A program made the position numbers and the translations under genes. Under the pieces are notes generated by a model. That model had not been told where the DNA came from, ran no database searches, and worked only from the letters and a program-made list of their open reading frames with translations. Source: Kiritimatiellota bacterium (GTDB lineage: Bacteria; Verrucomicrobiota; Kiritimatiellia; RFP12; UBA1067). From it: 49,888 bases of DNA. The stretch lies in NCBI GenBank assembly GCA_009778475.1, contig WRJS01000014.1, forward strand, positions 1 to 49,888, in the 5' to 3' direction. Below are positions 3,747-39,180 of the stretch, piece by piece (position 1 is the first letter of the stretch; each line of letters begins with the position of its first letter).

Positions 3747-3892
3747 TTTTTTGACAGGATGAACAGGATGAAGATGAAACGTCAAAAGCCAAGGTTTTGC
3801 GCCTCTGCGAAAACATCTCCCAGGACATTCTCCCAGAGCGCATCAACTTGGACATTCCTTGTTGAATGTTGGATATTCAGAAAGGCTTCCCC

Positions 3893-12997: not shown

Positions 12998-13074
12998 TTT
13001 TTAGTGTTTTCTTTTTTCTGTAACCCATACCAAAATTGTAGTTGGCAATAGTTTTTATCGCTGCTAACACTTGA

Positions 13075-14694
13075 TTATTGCTGGAGAAAATCATGTATGT
13101 TCTCATTGACATACTGGACGAAATATTCAAGAACTCGATTCATGATGGCTTTATCTTTTACAAAAACATAAAATGCGACATCGCCACACAGTAACTTATA
13201 ATCACGAGGGGGCAGCAATTCTTTCAGTTTATAAGCTTTCTTTGTCCCATTTTCGTTTTTATAGATATATAATTCTGAAATATCATAAAAATTATTTTGT
13301 TTGTGAGGGATTGCTAATTCGCCTTTGCGAATGGATAATTTTTCTTCTATATGTGTTTGTAAAGAACTTCTCGCTTCGTCATTTTGAACAAACTTGGGCA
13401 CTTTATCTCGATTAATATCAGAAAATCGCTTTAAAAACTGATTATAATCAAACAATGTTTTCCAACTCGTCTTCAAAAAAGTTCTGTCCGTTAACTGGTT
13501 TAGTAATATTGGCGTGGTTGCATGAATATTCTCGTCTTTTGACCGACATAAATTAGTTGCTCTTTGTATGTAATAGTACACATCATTATCTGTAACTTTT
13601 TTATCTGCTATTGCCTCACAGCTAAATAATTCTTTTTTGTTTACAGCCTCTGGATACAAAGAAGGGTTGCTAAATAAATTATTCTCCTCTTGGTATAAAG
13701 AGAATAAGTGTGATAGACACTGAGCATATAAGTAATCAGTATAAACAACGATGTGATGATTACATACCCACATATAAAGACTATCTCTACAATCAATCAG
13801 TTTTTTTAATGAAGATAAAGCTCCTATTTTAAAACAAACATGCTTTGTTTCGGATATAGCTAAAAATGACAAAATTCTTTGTTTATCAATAAATCCGCCA
13901 ACATTTCCTGTCATATAGTTGTCTCTCATCAAATAGTCCATTTTATCAACATCAAACGTTCCGTTTATCAATTCAATAATAATATTTCTATCCCAAAAGT
14001 TTCTCCAACTCTTGGCTTCGCGACCACAATACTTTGTTCCTGTAATTATTCTACAAATAAAATCCAAGTCTAATTGAATTCTCGGATTTTTTAGGCTAGA
14101 AAAAATCGAATTCAACTGCTCTCGGAAATTCTTCGCAATCACATAACATGACATCAACTCGTGTGCAGAACCTTTTTCCGTTGACGCTTTATCGACTCCA
14201 AAGGTCGATAAATTAGTTTCAATCTCTTCCTTCACATAAAACTTTTCTCCAATGTGTGATAATGGGGCATGTCCAACATCGTGTAGAAGGGCAGCGTATT
14301 GCAAGTGCATTTGGAGAAAAAGCAAGCGGTCTTCAATACTATGTTCCCTTAAGAAGTCAGAGTGTCCAAGTATATGCTCCTCGATATTTGATTTTAACTC
14401 TTTGGAAATATGGCAATAAGCGTCATTTGCCAACTTCATTACCCCTAATGAATGTTCAAATCTTGTGTGATTTGCAGACGGGAAAAGATGCCGTGCTGTC
14501 AGCTGACCAATGAACTTTAATCTTTGAAAAGATGCAGTATCGATAATTGATTCCACGTCTTGATCTATTTCAACATAACCATGTACAAGGTCAAAAATAA
14601 TTTTTATTTTGTTTTCCACAACAGAAACCCCATCTTTCCTTTTCTCTACCCCCGTCAGTAGTTTTACCCCCTCCTGTTCGTCCGACTTTCTCAC
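13075..14694 (-). CDS. HD-domain phosphohydrolase, SAMHD1/dGTPase-like, AT-rich
   Basis: 539 residues. The HD metal site is complete: His81 in TRFEHSLGV, His138-Asp139 in ALLHDVGHAPLSH, and Asp250/Asp253 in FDVDKMDYLMRDN, the layout of SAMHD1 and related dNTP triphosphohydrolases. FQRLKFIGQL and the LFPSANH segment are also typical. A C-terminal region of about 200 residues has no recognised domain. Base composition is strikingly AT-rich compared with all neighbours, which indicates recent transfer. Start: the GTG at 14694 is used; a later in-frame GTG just before ENKIKIIFDLVHG is an alternative. Neighbours are DUF4143 and DUF1016 genes, so a role in defence (nucleotide depletion) is plausible but inferred. 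Confidence 0.85.
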   Translation of the reverse strand: MRKSDEQEGVKLLTGVEKRKDGVSVVENKIKIIFDLVHGYVEIDQDVESIIDTASFQRLKFIGQLTARHLFPSANHTRFEHSLGVMKLANDAYCHISKELKSNIEEHILGHSDFLREHSIEDRLLFLQMHLQYAALLHDVGHAPLSHIGEKFYVKEEIETNLSTFGVDKASTEKGSAHELMSCYVIAKNFREQLNSIFSSLKNPRIQLDLDFICRIITGTKYCGREAKSWRNFWDRNIIIELINGTFDVDKMDYLMRDNYMTGNVGGFIDKQRILSFLAISETKHVCFKIGALSSLKKLIDCRDSLYMWVCNHHIVVYTDYLYAQCLSHLFSLYQEENNLFSNPSLYPEAVNKKELFSCEAIADKKVTDNDVYYYIQRATNLCRSKDENIHATTPILLNQLTDRTFLKTSWKTLFDYNQFLKRFSDINRDKVPKFVQNDEARSSLQTHIEEKLSIRKGELAIPHKQNNFYDISELYIYKNENGTKKAYKLKELLPPRDYKLLCGDVAFYVFVKDKAIMNRVLEYFVQYVNENIHDFLQQ

Positions 14695-15107: not shown

Positions 15108-15217
15108 GTATCCCTGCGGGATGTCGGGACGCTGGATTTGTTTTTTTGGTTGACCTCCACCCATTCGGCACGGATGGCTGTGAGCGCACAAAAATCATTT
15201 GAACTCGATATGCTCAT
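15080..15217 (-). CDS. Possible small ORF, 45 aa, overlapping the DUF4143 ATPase stop
   Basis: Begins MSISSSNDFCALTAIRAEW and ends TESKDDETF. Its ATG overlaps the ATPase stop codon (ATGA), so it could be translated by coupling. The last codons and the stop lie in repeat copy B, and match the end of the DUF1016 protein (KDDETI). It may be a deletion remnant carrying the tail of a lost gene. Confidence 0.4.
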   Translation of the reverse strand: MSISSSNDFCALTAIRAEWVEVNQKNKSSVPTSRRDTESKDDETF

Positions 15218-16557
15218 TGTGTTTTATCCTTCCCCAACAGCCAGTCCGCCACGTTCAGTTTGCGGATGCCGTCATAGACGGGGTTGAAGTCGATGTCGGT
15301 GGTTAGCAGGTACTTCGGGTTGGAGTCCCGGATCGCCCTCAGCGGCGCAAGTTCGCGCTCCAAGGTTTTCGGGTCGATCGTCGAAAACGCCACTTGGAAA
15401 TAGGCGACATTCCTGTCGTGGTCAATGACCACGAAATCAATTTCCTGCCCGTTCCATTTGCCGACGTGGACGTTGACGTAGCGCCGCCGCAGTTCAAGGT
15501 ACACCATGTTCTCAAGCAGATGCCCCAGATCCGCAGACTTGCCCTTTGCCAGGCGCACCTTGCGGAACCCCGTGTCCGACAGGTAATATTTGTCGAGCGT
15601 GCGCAACAAGCCCTTGCCCTTCAAATCGTAGCGAGACACCTTGTAAAACAGGTACGACTCGGTCAAATAGTCGAGGTACTGGCTCACCGTCTTGTTGTCG
15701 ATGGGCATATTTTCAGCCTTGAACGCCTTGGCAATCGAACTGGGCGAAACCAGCGAGCCGATGGAATCCATCAGGAAATCAACCAGTTTCCGAAATGAAG
15801 CCTGTGCGTAAATTTCATGCCGCTGGAAGATGTCCTTTTCAATGATGGTGTCCAGAACGGATTGCAGAAACCCTTTGCTTTGCTCTTGGTCGTCGGCGCC
15901 CAAACCAACGGCGTAAGGCATCCCGCCGTCGTACTGGAAATCGAACATGCGCTCGTTCATGACCATTCCGACGGGAAGGACACCGCCTTTCGCTAAATTC
16001 CCAAAACTTTCTTTTTTTGAAAGTTTTAGGAATTTAGCCTTGGCGTCATCGTCAGGGCTAATTTGTTGCGGTTCGCCATAGAGGCGTTGAAATTCGTCAT
16101 ACTCGCTGTACGAGAAGGGCAGGACTTCGGTCGGGATGTACCGCCCCGTCAACAGCGTCGCTAATTCGCCGGAAAGCAGGTGGGCGTTGGAGCCGGTGAT
16201 GTACACATCGCAATTCGGCTTGATGTACAGGCTGTCCACGAGACGCTGGAAGTCCGCAACATTTTGAACCTCGTCGAGGAAGATGTAATTCATCTTATCG
16301 GCGACGAGCCTGTTTTTGATGTGGGTGTGAACCTGGAAAATGTCGCCCAGCGCCAGCGTCTCCAAATCCTCAAAATTATAAAACTGGATTTGCTTGCGCG
16401 TCACGCCCTTTTGACGCAACTCGTCCGCGAACATCTGCAAGAGCGTGGACTTCCCCGCGCGACGCACCCCCGTGATGACCTTGATGACGTCCCTGTCCTT
16501 CAGGTCGCGGAGCCGTTGCATATACCGTCTGCGCTCGACAAGCCGTTTCGCTTTCAT
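15214..16557 (-). CDS. AAA ATPase with DUF4143 domain, carrying a repeat-encoded insertion
   Basis: 447 residues. Walker A GVRRAGKST (Lys36), Walker B YIFLDEVQNV, sensor TGSNAHLLSG, then TGRYIPTEVLPFSYSEY; the C-terminal DUF4143 nuclease-like domain has ENMVYLELRRR and GKWNGQEIDFVV. Family members normally go from the PFSYSEYDEF segment to an FxxY.GGMPYAV segment within about 25 residues; here an extra stretch of roughly 30 residues (FLKLSKKESFGNLAKGG and onward) is inserted at about 172-204, and its DNA is a 20-bp hairpin (15992-16038). Function of the family is unknown; it is frequent in accessory regions of gut anaerobes. Fusion to no other domain. Confidence 0.87.
   Translation of the reverse strand: MKAKRLVERRRYMQRLRDLKDRDVIKVITGVRRAGKSTLLQMFADELRQKGVTRKQIQFYNFEDLETLALGDIFQVHTHIKNRLVADKMNYIFLDEVQNVADFQRLVDSLYIKPNCDVYITGSNAHLLSGELATLLTGRYIPTEVLPFSYSEYDEFQRLYGEPQQISPDDDAKAKFLKLSKKESFGNLAKGGVLPVGMVMNERMFDFQYDGGMPYAVGLGADDQEQSKGFLQSVLDTIIEKDIFQRHEIYAQASFRKLVDFLMDSIGSLVSPSSIAKAFKAENMPIDNKTVSQYLDYLTESYLFYKVSRYDLKGKGLLRTLDKYYLSDTGFRKVRLAKGKSADLGHLLENMVYLELRRRYVNVHVGKWNGQEIDFVVIDHDRNVAYFQVAFSTIDPKTLERELAPLRAIRDSNPKYLLTTDIDFNPVYDGIRKLNVADWLLGKDKTQ
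15992..16038. repeat. Perfect-stem hairpin element within the DUF4143 ATPase gene
   Basis: Two 20-base arms (15992-16011 and 16019-16038), starting GCTAAATTCC and ending GGAATTTAGC, are complementary with one mismatch (G-T wobble possible in the transcript) around a loop of seven T. AT-rich and unlike the other repeat families in the window. It remains in frame and encodes KFLKLSKKESFGNLAK. Confidence 0.8.
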
Positions 16558-16817: not shown

Positions 16818-16847
16818 TTGCGGAGGCTATGCCCCAATTGCTATACT
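16818..16847 (+). promoter_or_regulatory. Promoter directly at the start of the repeat-protein gene
   Basis: TTGCGG, 18-base spacer, TATACT. The -10 box ends six bases before the ATG at 16854, so if this is the promoter the mRNA would be essentially leaderless. The rest of 16558-16817 shows no gene. Confidence 0.4.
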
Positions 16848-16853
16848 CCCTAC

Positions 16854-19706
16854 ATGGATACAATCAAGAAAATGGTAGTCGGAATTGTTCCGGCATGTGT
16901 CGCGCTGTTGGCGGCGGACACGTGTCTGGCTTCGGAGATATTCATTGACGTGCCCGAGATTGTCCCGGTCATGGCGCGGTTGAAGAAGGGCGAGATGTCG
17001 CGGGAGGAGGCTGTCCGCACGCTGGCGGCCGTGGCGAACGGGTACAGGGAAGCCATGGAGGAAAGCCTTTCGCCTATCGCCGGAAAAGGGCGGTGGGACG
17101 AACGCGCCATGTATTGCGGTACCGTGCTGGCGGCGATAAGCAGGCTCAAGGACAAAGCCTCGCTTCCGTTTTTTGAGGAGATGTCGCTCGCCATTTACGA
17201 GGACACTCGCAAGACGGCGATTGCGGGGTACATTGAGGTCGCCGAGCCTGTGGACGCGCTCCCGTTCATCGAACGGATTGAGCGGGATTGGCGTTACACC
17301 GAGCGCGACCGCGAGGCCGCATACCATCAACTGGCCAAATTCTTCATGGACTACAAGGCATGGAAACGGGAGCAGGAGAATTGGGGGCGGCGCGTGTCGC
17401 CCACTTCCCCCTATCCCGAACTTGCCAAGGCGGACAAGGGGAAGGTCTTCACCTTCATGCTGGAAAGGTTGCAGACAGAGCAGAACTCGGGCATCGCGCA
17501 GACGTTGGACAAACTGCTCGCGAGGCTGCTCTCCGGTTACGCGTCCAGCGTCCAGCGGGCGCAGGTCGCGGAAAGGTTTGACGACGGGAATTACGGTAGT
17601 TATTGGCTGGACGCCAGGACGGCTGTCGCCAAGACGCCGGAAAGGAGGCGCAAGGATTTTCGCGCGAAGGGCGAACTCCTCGAAGGGCGGGACGCGCGGG
17701 TATGGCAGAAACAAAAACCACCATTGCCCGACGACCCGGCCGCGCTGGCGGAACTTGCGCGGAAGGAGGCGGATGTTTGGGTGCGCCGCGCGGTGGTGCC
17801 AAAACTCGCTGACCAAGCGCTTTTGATGGCGTTGGCGGAAAACGACCCTGACCACGAGGTGCGCCGGCTGGCCGTCCTCCATCTCGCCGACCAAGCGTCC
17901 CTTGCGCGCATCGCGACGAATGACACCTACACATTGGCGATGCGCTGGGCCGCGGTGTCCCAGTTGGACGACCAGGCGCTGCTTGCGGAAATCGCCCAAA
18001 GCGACGCGGACGCGAATTTGCGTTGCGAGGCGATTTCCAGACTCGCCGACCAGCCGCTCCTTGCGCGCATCGTGCGGGATCGCGGCGAGGACAAGAGAAC
18101 ACGCCAATTGGCGATGCACGCGCTCACCGACCAAACGCTTTTAATGGAATTCGCAAGGAACGGCAATGAGAAATGGGAACGCCACGCAGCGGTGTATAAA
18201 ATCAGCGACCTGTCATGCCTTGCTGAAATCGCAAGGGACAGTCAGGATGGTTTTATGCGCCAAGTCGCGGTGGACAAGATCAACGACCAGACGCTCCTTG
18301 AAGAGATTGCAAGAATCGCGAACAGGGACGATTGGGATTGGGCGCGTTGGAAAGCCATCGGCAAACTCACAAACCAAACGCTTCTCGCCGAACTCGCGGC
18401 AAACGACGGCGATGTTCGGGCGCGTTGCGCGGCAATCCGCAAACTGACAGACCGAACACTCCTTCAAGGTCTTGCGAAGAATGACAAAGAACCGGACGTG
18501 CGCAAGGAGGCGGCAAGCAAACTCAAGGGCTTGACGCTTTTCCCCGAGTTCGGATTCACGCCAAACGCGCACGATGCCAACGTGCGCCAGGCGGCGGTCC
18601 AAAAAATGACCGATCAGGCCCTCATCGCGAAAATCGCCCAAAAAGACACGGACATGGGAGTGCGCAGGACGGCGGTGGCAAGACTGACCGACCAAGCCCT
18701 GCTTGCCAAAATCGCGCAGAATGACAAGGGCGAACATGTGCGTGGCGCGGCGGTGGAAAGGCTGGACAACCAAACCCTCCTTGAAAAAATCGCCCAAACG
18801 GACAAGCATGAGAGTGTGCGCCGTGAGGCGGTCAAAAAATTGACCAACCAAACCCTCATCGCGGAAATCGCGGAAAACGACAAGCACGAATGGGTGCGCG
18901 GTGACGCGATGCGGATGCTGGAGGACCAAGCCGCCATCGCGTGGATCGCAAAAAGCAGCGCGAATGAGCGTGTGCGCGTCAAGGCAATAGAACGGTTGAC
19001 CGACCCAGCCATCCTTGCCGACTTTGCGCAAAACGCCCAAACCGATTGGGAACGCACCACGGCAAGGAATCAAATCTATTGGATGACCTGCACATTAGAC
19101 GACACCGCCCGCCTTAAAAAACTCGCGAGGAATGCCGACGCGAAAGTCTCCGGGGAGGCAAAAGCACGGCTCAAGGAATTGGAATGGCGTGACAGACCTG
19201 AAAACCAAACAAACGCCGCGCAAGATAACGCAGACCCGTGGCCGCGCCAAACGGCGGTGTATCGGTTGACCGACCAGACACGCTTGGGCGAAATCGCAAC
19301 CACGGACGACGACCGCTTCGTGCGCCTTGCCGCAACCTACAAACTCCGCGACCAGAAAATCCTCGAAACATTGGCCGTCCACGACAGCGACTACTTTGTG
19401 CGTCTGGCGGCTGTATCCCAACTCACGGATCAGGCACTCCTCATGCAAATCGGGAAAAGTTCCAAAGACGAGGCCATGCTGAAGACCCTCCTTCCGCGCG
19501 TCAACGCCACCCATCAAACCTTCTTTGCGGAAATCGCAAGGCTCAACGCGCATCACAGCACCATGGACCTTGCGATATCCAGAATCACAGACCTGGCGCT
19601 TCTTGCCGAAATCGCAAACGACGATCCCCCAAACGATCACTGGTCCAAGGAAAAGGCGAGACATCGGTTAAAAATGTTGAAAGCGCAAAATAGCGGCATC
19701 CAATAG
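16854..19706 (+). CDS. Secreted protein of about 20 LRV/HEAT-like repeats
   Basis: 950 residues. An N-terminal signal peptide (MDTIKKMVVGIVPACVALLA, cleavage likely after CLA) is followed by a helical region of about 270 residues, then about 20 tandem units of 26-27 residues with the pattern VRxxAVxxLTDQxLLxxIAxND, for example in 17764-18960 and again 19232-19470. This matches the leucine-rich-repeat-variant/HEAT-like solenoid class, which binds proteins. Repeat 10 and the 19080-19225 stretch are degenerate. Residues before position 16854 (from a TTG at 16818) overlap the promoter and are not used. No partner is apparent; a periplasmic binding or scaffold role is inferred from fold only. Confidence 0.82.
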   Translation: MDTIKKMVVGIVPACVALLAADTCLASEIFIDVPEIVPVMARLKKGEMSREEAVRTLAAVANGYREAMEESLSPIAGKGRWDERAMYCGTVLAAISRLKDKASLPFFEEMSLAIYEDTRKTAIAGYIEVAEPVDALPFIERIERDWRYTERDREAAYHQLAKFFMDYKAWKREQENWGRRVSPTSPYPELAKADKGKVFTFMLERLQTEQNSGIAQTLDKLLARLLSGYASSVQRAQVAERFDDGNYGSYWLDARTAVAKTPERRRKDFRAKGELLEGRDARVWQKQKPPLPDDPAALAELARKEADVWVRRAVVPKLADQALLMALAENDPDHEVRRLAVLHLADQASLARIATNDTYTLAMRWAAVSQLDDQALLAEIAQSDADANLRCEAISRLADQPLLARIVRDRGEDKRTRQLAMHALTDQTLLMEFARNGNEKWERHAAVYKISDLSCLAEIARDSQDGFMRQVAVDKINDQTLLEEIARIANRDDWDWARWKAIGKLTNQTLLAELAANDGDVRARCAAIRKLTDRTLLQGLAKNDKEPDVRKEAASKLKGLTLFPEFGFTPNAHDANVRQAAVQKMTDQALIAKIAQKDTDMGVRRTAVARLTDQALLAKIAQNDKGEHVRGAAVERLDNQTLLEKIAQTDKHESVRREAVKKLTNQTLIAEIAENDKHEWVRGDAMRMLEDQAAIAWIAKSSANERVRVKAIERLTDPAILADFAQNAQTDWERTTARNQIYWMTCTLDDTARLKKLARNADAKVSGEAKARLKELEWRDRPENQTNAAQDNADPWPRQTAVYRLTDQTRLGEIATTDDDRFVRLAATYKLRDQKILETLAVHDSDYFVRLAAVSQLTDQALLMQIGKSSKDEAMLKTLLPRVNATHQTFFAEIARLNAHHSTMDLAISRITDLALLAEIANDDPPNDHWSKEKARHRLKMLKAQNSGIQ

Positions 19707-19764: not shown

Positions 19765-19845
19765 TTCGGGGCGCATACAGCCGCTATTGCAATATAGTGT
19801 CTATCAATAACATTGACACAGTTGGACATCTCAATGGCAAGCGTC

Positions 19846-19914
19846 GTAGAGACGGATGATTATCCGTCTCCGCAGGGCAATGACACGGGGAGACGGATAA
19901 TCATCCGTCTCTAC
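19846..19914. repeat. Perfect 26-bp inverted repeat
   Basis: Arms 19846-19871 and 19889-19914 (starting GTAGAGACGGATGATTATCC) are exactly complementary around a 17-base loop. Each arm contains a smaller palindrome (GACGGATgATTATCCGTC). It lies between two same-strand genes in the gene-free stretch 19707-20124 and could form a terminator-like structure without a T-tract. Confidence 0.85.
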
Positions 19915-20063
19915 GCATTATCCCAAAAAAGCGCACTCCATATTGCATACCTCTCATCAAACGGCCATGTGGCAATGGCGTGCATGAATGGCGGGTGACA
20001 GGGTTTTAGAGCAGGTCTAATAAATTGCCGCGAAACCGTATTCTGGTTATTGCGTCTATAGGC

Positions 20064-37806: not shown

Positions 37807-39117
37807 ATGAAAACTTTGGCATTGCGGCTTCACGGCAAGGACGACCTCCGCCTCGAGCGTTTCGCGCTCCCGGAGATTACGGATGACGAGATCCTCGCGG
37901 ACATCGTCACGAACAGCATCTGCATGTCGGACTATAAGGCGACGATCCAGGGCGCGGCGCACAAGCGCGTGCCGGACGATGTCGCGCAGAACCCCGTCAT
38001 CCTCGGCCACGAGTTCTGCGGCAAGCTGCTGGAGGTCGGCAAAAACTGGCAGCACAAATTCCGCGCGGGGCAGAAGTACGGCGTGCAGCCGCAGCTGAAC
38101 ATCCCCGGCCGCGAGCACTGGGCGCCGGGCTACTCGTTCCGCTGGATCGGCGGCAACGCCACGCGCATCATCATCCCGCGCGAGGTGCTGGAGCTCGACT
38201 GCCTGCTGACCTACGACGGCGACGCCTACTACAAGTCCTCCATCGCCGAGCCGGTGTCGTGCATCGTGGGCGCGTTCCGTTGCAGCTACCACTTCAAGGC
38301 CGGCGAGTACGCCCACCAGATGGGCATCAAAAACGGCGGCACGATGGCCATCCTCGCGGGCGCGGGACCCATGGGGCTGAGCGCGATCGACCTCGCGCTC
38401 CACGGCCCGGAGCACCGCCCCGGGCGCCTCGTCATCACCGACGTTGACCAGACGCGCCTCGACCGCGCCGCGCAGATTTTCCCCGTCGCCCACGCGCGGG
38501 ACTGCGGCGTGGAACTCATCTACCTCAACACCTCCGGCATGGGCGACCCCGTGCCACGCATCAAGGCGGTCAACGGCGGCAACGGCTTCAACGACGTGAT
38601 GGTGTTCGCGCCCGTCCCCGCGCTCATCGAGCAAGGCTCCGCGCTGCTCGACTTCCTCGGCTGCCTCAACTTCTTCGCCGGGCCCGCGCATCAGGACTTC
38701 AAGGCGGCGGTGAATTTCTACGATGTCCACTACATGGGGCATCACATCGTCGGCTCGTCGGGCGGGAACACCAAGGACTTGCAGGACTCGATGGACTACG
38801 CGGCGCAAGGGCTCGTCACGCCCTCGGTGATGATCACGCACGTCGGCGGCATCGACTCCGTTGCGGACGCGACCAAGACCCTCACGCAAGTGCCGGGCGG
38901 CAAGCGGCTGGTCTATACGCACGTGTCCATGCCCATGACCGCGATCACCGACTTTCCCGCGCTCGGCCAGCGCGACCCCTACTTCGCCGCGCTCGCCGAC
39001 ATCTGCGCCCGCAACAACGGCCTCTGGTGCTCCGAGGCGGAGGAGTACGTTTTGAAGAACGCACCGAGGCTGGAGGAGGATTCCGGGAGCGCAGGGCTTC
39101 CGCCCTGCCAATATTAA
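37807..39117 (+). CDS. Zinc-dependent dehydrogenase, L-sorbose-1-phosphate reductase (SorE)-like, with repeat-derived tail
   Basis: 436 residues. Medium-chain dehydrogenase fold: NSICMSDYKATIQGAAHK, VILGHEFCG (Zn ligands), and the nucleotide loop ILAGAGPMGL. Almost every block (CMSDYKATIQGA, HEFCGKLLEVGKNWQHKF, INFYDVHY-like NFYDVHYMGHH, GGNTKDLQD) is shared with bacterial SorE, so it probably reduces a keto-sugar phosphate. The normal end is near EYVLKNAPRLEE; the last residues GSAGLPPCQY are encoded by the palindrome at 39085-39145. ATG 37807 is chosen by homology; ATG 37798 would add three residues. Confidence 0.85.
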   Translation: MKTLALRLHGKDDLRLERFALPEITDDEILADIVTNSICMSDYKATIQGAAHKRVPDDVAQNPVILGHEFCGKLLEVGKNWQHKFRAGQKYGVQPQLNIPGREHWAPGYSFRWIGGNATRIIIPREVLELDCLLTYDGDAYYKSSIAEPVSCIVGAFRCSYHFKAGEYAHQMGIKNGGTMAILAGAGPMGLSAIDLALHGPEHRPGRLVITDVDQTRLDRAAQIFPVAHARDCGVELIYLNTSGMGDPVPRIKAVNGGNGFNDVMVFAPVPALIEQGSALLDFLGCLNFFAGPAHQDFKAAVNFYDVHYMGHHIVGSSGGNTKDLQDSMDYAAQGLVTPSVMITHVGGIDSVADATKTLTQVPGGKRLVYTHVSMPMTAITDFPALGQRDPYFAALADICARNNGLWCSEAEEYVLKNAPRLEEDSGSAGLPPCQY

Positions 39118-39180
39118 CGATGCAGGGCGGAAGCCCTGCGCTCCCGGCGCTATGCGCTCCCGGCATTTGCGCTCCCGGAC
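39085..39180. repeat. Perfect 24-bp inverted repeat plus two partial copies (GGGAGCGCAGGGC family)
   Basis: Arms 39085-39108 and 39122-39145 are exact complements around a 13-base loop; each arm equals the unit at 4302-4325. Two shorter pieces (TGCGCTCCCGG) follow at 39153 and 39170. The stem may terminate the SorE-like gene, whose stop lies in the loop. Confidence 0.9.

What the first reader, a model, noticed from the sequence alone, without database searches (positions are those of the whole stretch)
15980..16050. Palindromic element inserted in frame in a DUF4143 ATPase
A 20-bp stem with a 7-T loop lies in the coding sequence and encodes a stretch of about 30 residues (FLKLSKKESFGNLAKGG onward) that DUF4143 proteins normally lack between the ..SYSEYDEF and GGMPYAV segments. 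The insertion keeps the frame. Rickettsia palindromic elements are the known precedent for repeats that add peptides to proteins; this one is AT-rich in a GC-rich genome and of unrelated sequence, so it may be a separate family.
Basis: partly seen in the sequence, partly recalled or inferred. Interest (0 to 1): 0.65.

Follow-up and report, generated by a model that had tools for sequence, protein, structure and literature searches.

The report
Gene carrying its protein's own DNA-binding site
The palindrome inside this ATPase gene is not a jumping repeat: across dozens of related genes its variable bases track three amino acids in the DNA-reading helix of the protein the gene encodes, which suggests that members of a very common, little-understood candidate anti-phage gene family (PDC-S01) each carry a binding site for their own product.

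Summary
The hairpin is real: 20-bp arms, one mismatch, 7-T loop, at 15992-16038, inside the minus-strand AAA_14/DUF4143 ATPase gene 15214-16557. Most homologues lack about 28-34 residues there. The mobile-repeat reading fails: the arm is unique in this genome. The closest homologues, in termite-gut Bacteroidota, Spirochaetota and Kiritimatiellota, carry 1-4 hairpins at the same spot, with different arms that co-vary (9 of 14 pairs show two-sided changes). Other DUF4143 genes carry such palindromes at the promoter or 5' end (23/79 against 13/427 control genes). The variable bases follow residues at the start of the recognition helix of the protein's own winged helix: D-x-K-T goes with TTCC, and the residue x with the next base (N:T, H:C, V:A, D/Q/S:G). 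This protein has D-N-K-T and the site TTCCT. The association holds between proteins under 25% identical, and a test written down before the genes were fetched gave 4/7 correct against 1.3 expected (p=0.023). The gene is mosaic: its ends group with its own genus, while its middle block, carrying helix and site type, groups with a Bacteroidota gene. Best explanation: the palindrome is the cognate operator of the encoded ATPase, lying inside its gene. Binding, repression and any defence role are untested.

The parts
15992..16038 (.). Palindrome: arms 15992-16011 and 16019-16038, loop 16012-16018. Half-sites, read towards the loop, are TTCCTAAAACTT and TTCCCAAAACTT. Proposed operator.
15214..16557 (-). 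AAA_14 + DUF4143 ATPase gene, 447 aa; best PADLOC match PDC-S01
15946..16065 (-). Residues about 165-204: extra, palindrome-encoded junction segment; 165-169 and 175-194 predicted with pLDDT below 50
16099..16485 (-). AAA_14 ATPase domain, residues 25-153 (groups with the same-genus homologue L045)
15622..15810 (-). Winged helix-turn-helix, residues about 250-312 (helices 252-264, 272-281, 288-300; strands 304-311)
   Evidence: assignment as a winged helix from the order of elements and sequence pattern is inference
15688..15699 (-). Specificity residues D287-N288-K289-T290 at the start of the recognition helix
15388..15840 (-). Pfam DUF4143 match, residues 240-390; includes EIDFVV (372) and YFQVA (386), a PD-(D/E)XK-like pattern without the lysine (own reading)
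15373..15915 (-). Exchanged block tested as residues 215-395; groups with L039 (Bacteroidota), while the ends group with L045 (same genus)

Best explanation
The palindrome is a double-stranded DNA binding site (operator) for the protein that the gene encodes. DUF4143 ATPases carry a winged helix whose recognition helix begins with four key residues; three of them specify three bases of each half-site (TT-S1S2S3-N-AAA). In most family members with a detectable site it lies at the promoter or 5' end of the gene. In the clade of the window gene it lies inside the coding sequence, at the joint between the ATPase and DUF4143 domains, where it is translated as a variable, probably disordered linker and can be duplicated in tandem. 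Most likely the protein binds its own gene and limits its transcription; inside the gene, as a roadblock to RNA polymerase. Shown here by sequence: the site, its co-variation, its link to the recognition helix, the mosaic. Inferred: binding, repression, roadblock. Confidence about 0.85 for cognate binding site, about 0.55 for autorepression.
For: Arms co-vary across 28 units: 89.8% of cells paired, 9 of 14 pairs with two-sided changes, covariation 0.313 against at most 0.078 for slid controls. Palindromes of at least 11 bp within 90 nt upstream of 23/79 DUF4143 genes against 13/427 other genes, Fisher p=6.5e-12. They overlap or adjoin promoter-like elements: just upstream of TATCTTTG in L120, L126, L131; spanning TTGACG-TATAAT in L064; at the presumed transcript start in L133, L088. 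D-x-K-T goes with TTCC: 13/16 clusters against 3/32, p=1.3e-6; the base after TTCC follows x: N:T 12/13, H:C 3/3, V:A 5/5, D/Q/S:G 4/4, M:G 2/2, K:C 1/1. Proteins below 25% identity with identical helix triplet share 38% of arm 5-mers against 3.4%; cluster permutation p=2e-4, the floor. Test written down before fetching: 4/7 correct, 1.28 expected, p=0.023. Internal and upstream sites of the SHNT genes share the arm TGACGAAA. Site type changed with the block carrying the winged helix. No other copy in the genome, so the own gene is the only visible target.
Against: No binding or expression data. Many DUF4143 genes show no detectable palindrome. Exceptions to the code: L256 (DNKT, TTCCA), L064/L066 (DQKT, TTCCT), L258 (SNKT, TTCCT), L324 and L342; L042 and L044 (DNKT) carry both CGCC and TTCC-type sites. 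The h2-to-base rule was drawn up after seeing both the first and second gene sets; only the last 7 genes are truly out of sample. The independent-pairs test on the tree was underpowered. The window clade has no upstream site that I could see, so its only site is about 520 nt inside the gene. Similar hairpins also lie next to unrelated genes in Bacteroidota.
Confidence: 0.7

Rival explanations
1. The palindrome is the DNA address of a mobile or homing gene: the AAA/PD-(D/E)XK-like protein recognises the site and the gene spreads into or next to such sites, or its block is exchanged there.
For: Many copies per genome (34 in G388); sites on both sides of the gene in L197; internal sites of the SHNT genes map to Q residue 388-392, and the window site precedes the block tested at 215-395, so sites lie near both edges of the exchanged block.
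Against: Sites are intact, not split by the gene; no empty site found in the own genome; no target duplication examined; the PD-(D/E)XK-like motif of this protein lacks the lysine (own reading of the sequence).
Confidence: 0.15
2. The hairpin acts in the messenger RNA (structure, stability, translation, co-translational folding).
For: Very stable hairpin, -35.1 kcal/mol, z -9.4; arms co-vary; some 5' sites begin at the presumed transcript start.
Against: Several sites lie upstream of the -7 box or span -35/-10, outside the presumed transcript; recurrent C-A mismatches on the sense strand; an RNA role does not predict agreement with the recognition helix.
Confidence: 0.07
3. A mobile palindromic element inserted in frame, like the Rickettsia palindromic elements.
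For: Peptide-coding palindrome, frame kept, extra residues in a predicted disordered loop.
Against: Single copy in the genome; always at one site of one protein family or at the 5' end of its genes; arms differ between homologues yet co-vary.
Confidence: 0.03
4. Palindromes kept by mutation bias (template switching between arms) without function.
For: Concerted change of both arms, including in tandem units of L042.
Against: Does not explain position at promoters or the link with the helix residues between proteins under 25% identical.
Confidence: 0.03

Closest known systems
PDC-S01 (PADLOC phage defence candidate; ATPase fused to a PD-(D/E)XK-type domain)
   Same: The protein matches it over nearly full length (5-443, E=6.5e-141). 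Reported as the fourth most common defence gene in prokaryotes, with experimental validation pending for most such candidates (PMC12988326).
   Different: I found no report of a cognate palindrome, recognition code or autoregulation; the only paper in the library that names DUF4143 is on Thermus Argonaute.
Operators inside coding sequences with transcriptional roadblocking (E. coli PurR at purB, cited in PMC4132739; lac O2 in lacZ, own knowledge)
   Same: A regulator site inside a coding sequence; roadblocking is an established effect.
   Different: Here the site lies in the gene of the binding protein itself, at a domain joint, is translated as a linker, and changed type together with the specificity domain.
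Rickettsia palindromic elements (and Wolbachia, Methanocaldococcus counterparts)
   Same: In-frame, peptide-coding palindrome in a loop region.
   Different: Not repeated in the genome, not in unrelated genes, arms not a sequence family.
PARCEL (PMC2996958)
   Same: Palindromic DNA encoding variable-number protein repeats, spread between phyla.
   Different: PARCEL units are 25-residue amphipathic repeats (DUF285-like) in ORFs of unknown function, many membrane-targeted; here a linker in a AAA ATPase.

Membership tests
Rickettsia palindromic element-like mobile element | Many copies of one palindromic sequence in the genome | tested here: not met
   arm at up to 3 mismatches: only itself; covariance model: only itself in G000
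Rickettsia palindromic element-like mobile element | In-frame insertion in unrelated genes | tested here: not met
   coding hits are in DUF4143 genes at the same joint; others are intergenic
PARCEL | 25-residue tandem amphipathic repeat in tracts (DUF285/TIGR02167) | tested here: not met
   no such Pfam match; units here are 13-14 codons of hairpin plus spacer
AAA_14/DUF4143 ATPase | Pfam PF13173 and PF13635 over cut-off | tested here: met
   107.8 and 76.8 bits
PDC-S01 phage defence candidate | PADLOC profile match over the protein | tested here: met
   E=6.5e-141, 5-443
PDC-S01 phage defence candidate | Protection against phage | not testable with these tools
   no experiment; listed as candidate in PMC12988326
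Cognate autoregulatory operator | Palindrome at promoters of the regulator's own genes above background | tested here: met
   23/79 against 13/427
Cognate autoregulatory operator | Site bases co-vary with recognition-helix residues | tested here: met
Cognate autoregulatory operator | Protein binds the site and changes transcription | not testable with these tools
   needs binding and reporter assays
Known structured RNA family (Rfam) | Match over gathering score | tested here: not met
   only sub-threshold chance hits

The most novel reading that the evidence does not exclude
PDC-S01/DUF4143 ATPases are self-addressed DNA-binding machines: each gene carries its own cognate palindrome, read through an additive three-residue to three-base code, and site and specificity domain can be exchanged together between genes as a cassette, so that occupancy or loss of the self-site is the signal that controls a defence or self/non-self decision.
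Probability: 0.25. Interest if true: 0.92.

Novelty: new variant of a known kind. Interest (0 to 1): 0.78.

Why it matters
DUF4143/PDC-S01 genes are among the most numerous candidate antiviral genes in prokaryotes, and neither a mechanism nor a ligand turned up in the papers searched. A cognate DNA site with a readable code gives a direct, testable handle on the family: what DNA each protein binds, which residues set it, and that specificity and site can move together between phyla. It also warns that in-frame palindromes are not always selfish repeats.

Tried and rejected
Repeat family within the genome: none. General abundance of this hairpin in host genomes: a census of 295 kb of G122 shows 4 hairpins of at least 12 bp in 239 kb of open reading frames and none of this type. 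Viral contigs: no relative found. Rfam: nothing. PDB by sequence: nothing; by fold: archaeal AAA+ ATPase 2fna, then STAND and Orc1/Cdc6 proteins, low TM-scores. Independent-pairs tree test: too few supported pairs. First attempt at start-codon assignment missed many genes and was replaced by one based on the Walker A motif. An IQ-TREE run failed and was redone with treekit. No paper on DUF4143 with palindromes.

Full report
OBSERVATION. The inverted repeat 15992-16011/16019-16038 (GCTAAATTCCCAAAACTTTC / GAAAGTTTTAGGAATTTAGC, 7-T loop) is present as described, within the single ORF 15214-16557 on the minus strand, an AAA_14 plus DUF4143 protein. As RNA the region folds far better than shuffles (z -9.4). 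Among 115 genomes of the same family, homologues break at residue about 153-157 and resume at about 201-207: the extra residues are real. The arm occurs only here in the 3.97-Mb genome, up to 3 mismatches.

THE CLOSEST RELATIVES. A scan of GTDB species genomes found 43 homologous loci. The nearest, in MAGs of Bacteroidota, Spirochaetota, Kiritimatiellota and others, several of them apparently from termite guts, carry at the same joint one to four copies of a related peptide, [K/N]S[P/Q]NLSKxESxx, each encoded by a hairpin of about 14-12-14 nt. Homologues at about 45% identity lack it. The arms differ between genes, and between tandem units of one gene, but stay complementary: CGCC/GGCG, CCTC/GAGG, CCCC/GGGG, GCGA/TCGC. 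Over 28 units, 9 of 14 pairs show changes on both sides; the covariation score is 0.313 against at most 0.078 for slid pairings. In single-unit genes the hairpin stretch aligns without a gap to the normal linker and helix start, so the extra residues of the window gene are best read as an additional copy of a site that already occupied this place (inference).

SITES OUTSIDE THE CLADE. A covariance model of the unit found, besides the DUF4143 joints, intergenic hairpins, several directly in front of other DUF4143 genes: L191, L193, L201, and both sides of the gene in L197. A systematic scan gave a hairpin of at least 11 bp within 90 nt upstream of 23 of 79 DUF4143 genes against 13 of 427 other genes (p=6.5e-12; genes are related, so p is optimistic, while the control set contains loci chosen for hairpins, which is conservative). 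Positions are operator-like: upstream of the Bacteroidota -7 box (TATCTTTG) in L120, L126 and L131, across TTGACG-TATAAT in the Ruminococcus gene L064, or at the presumed transcript start in L133 and L088 (promoter calls are my reading of consensus motifs). In the SHNT group (TGACGAAA arms), several genes have the same arm upstream and inside the gene.

THE LINK TO THE PROTEIN. The DUF4143 region has helices 252-264, 272-281 and 288-300 followed by strands 304-311 in the AlphaFold model (pLDDT above 85 there), a winged-helix pattern. Aligning proteins by recognition helix and listing their sites showed at once that D-x-K-T goes with TTCC, D-K-[EQ] with CGCC, SHNT with TGAC, HHxT with ATC. This was then checked on further DUF4143 genes from other genomes and subfamilies: the D-x-K-T/TTCC link held even in the 380-residue subfamily, where the hairpin has a 3-nt loop and the half-sites point outward. 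The base after TTCC follows residue x: N:T in 12 of 13, H:C 3/3, V:A 5/5, D/Q/S:G 4/4, M:G 2/2, K:C 1/1. By clusters at 60% identity, D-x-K-T against TTCC is 13/16 versus 3/32 (p=1.3e-6). Pairs of proteins below 25% identity share 38% of arm 5-mers if the helix triplet is identical and 3.4% if it has no match; over 34 cluster representatives the permutation p is 2e-4, the floor. The rule for x was drawn up after seeing both gene sets; I therefore wrote the full code into the notebook before fetching 40 more loci. Of 7 evaluable genes 4 matched, 1.28 expected under shuffling, p=0.023. The window protein has D287-N288-K289-T290 and half-sites TTCCT and TTCCC.

MOSAIC. At the DNA level the ends of the window gene (codons 5-146 and 398-441) group with L045, of the same genus (support 99/95), while the middle (215-395) groups with L039 of Dysgonamonadaceae (100/99); grouping the middle with L045 is rejected (AU p=3.9e-5). 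L045 has DKQV and CGCC; L039 has DNKT and TTCCT. The helix and the type of internal site therefore changed together. The breakpoints were not mapped base by base.

MECHANISM. The simplest account is that the protein binds its own gene. With a site at the promoter this would be autorepression; with a site about 520 nt inside the gene, a roadblock, as known for other repressors (PMC4132739). Neither binding nor repression has been shown. The PADLOC profile PDC-S01 matches the protein (E=6.5e-141); PDC-S01 is reported as the fourth most common defence gene in prokaryotes and as an ATPase joined to a PD-(D/E)XK-type domain, with validation pending for most such candidates (PMC12988326). A homing or self/non-self role remains open.

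LIMITS. Many family members show no palindrome, five genes break the code (L256, L064, L066, L324, L342), L258 breaks its first position, and L042/L044 carry both site types. The tree-based pair test had too few supported pairs. Similar hairpins next to unrelated genes (GH2, amylase, TonB receptor) could be terminators or further targets.

Noticed in passing
window 13075-14694 (-): AT-rich (about 31% GC at 13001-14000) gene with weak similarity to HD-domain dGTPases, next to the DUF4143 gene; probably acquired.
   Followed up: partly
window 16818-19706 (+): 962-aa ORF of repeated HEAT-like units (LTDQxLLAxIAxxDxxxxVRxxAV); no NCBIfam match from 16878 on.
   Followed up: partly
window 19845-19915: Perfect 27-bp inverted repeat with 17-nt loop just after the repeat ORF.
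   Followed up: no
window 39083-39147: Perfect 26-bp inverted repeat with 13-nt loop.
   Followed up: no
L195 (G114:C85) 3752-3777: Weak covariance-model hit in the same-genus genome, in a region reading as repeats of 'STIAIVELSNRGDSPN'.
   Followed up: no
L187, L188, L189, L190: Hairpins with AAACTT/AAGTTT cores next to a TonB receptor, a metallo-beta-lactamase-fold gene, a GH2 gene and an amylase gene in Bacteroidota; terminators or possible further targets.
   Followed up: partly
G388: 34 DUF4143 matches in one 2.8-Mb genome (that of locus L069, a Clostridiales MAG).
   Followed up: no
L133, L132, L130, L136, L126, L139: Each of these DUF4143 genes has the same palindrome arm (TGACGAAA) upstream and inside at codon about 351-355.
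   Followed up: yes
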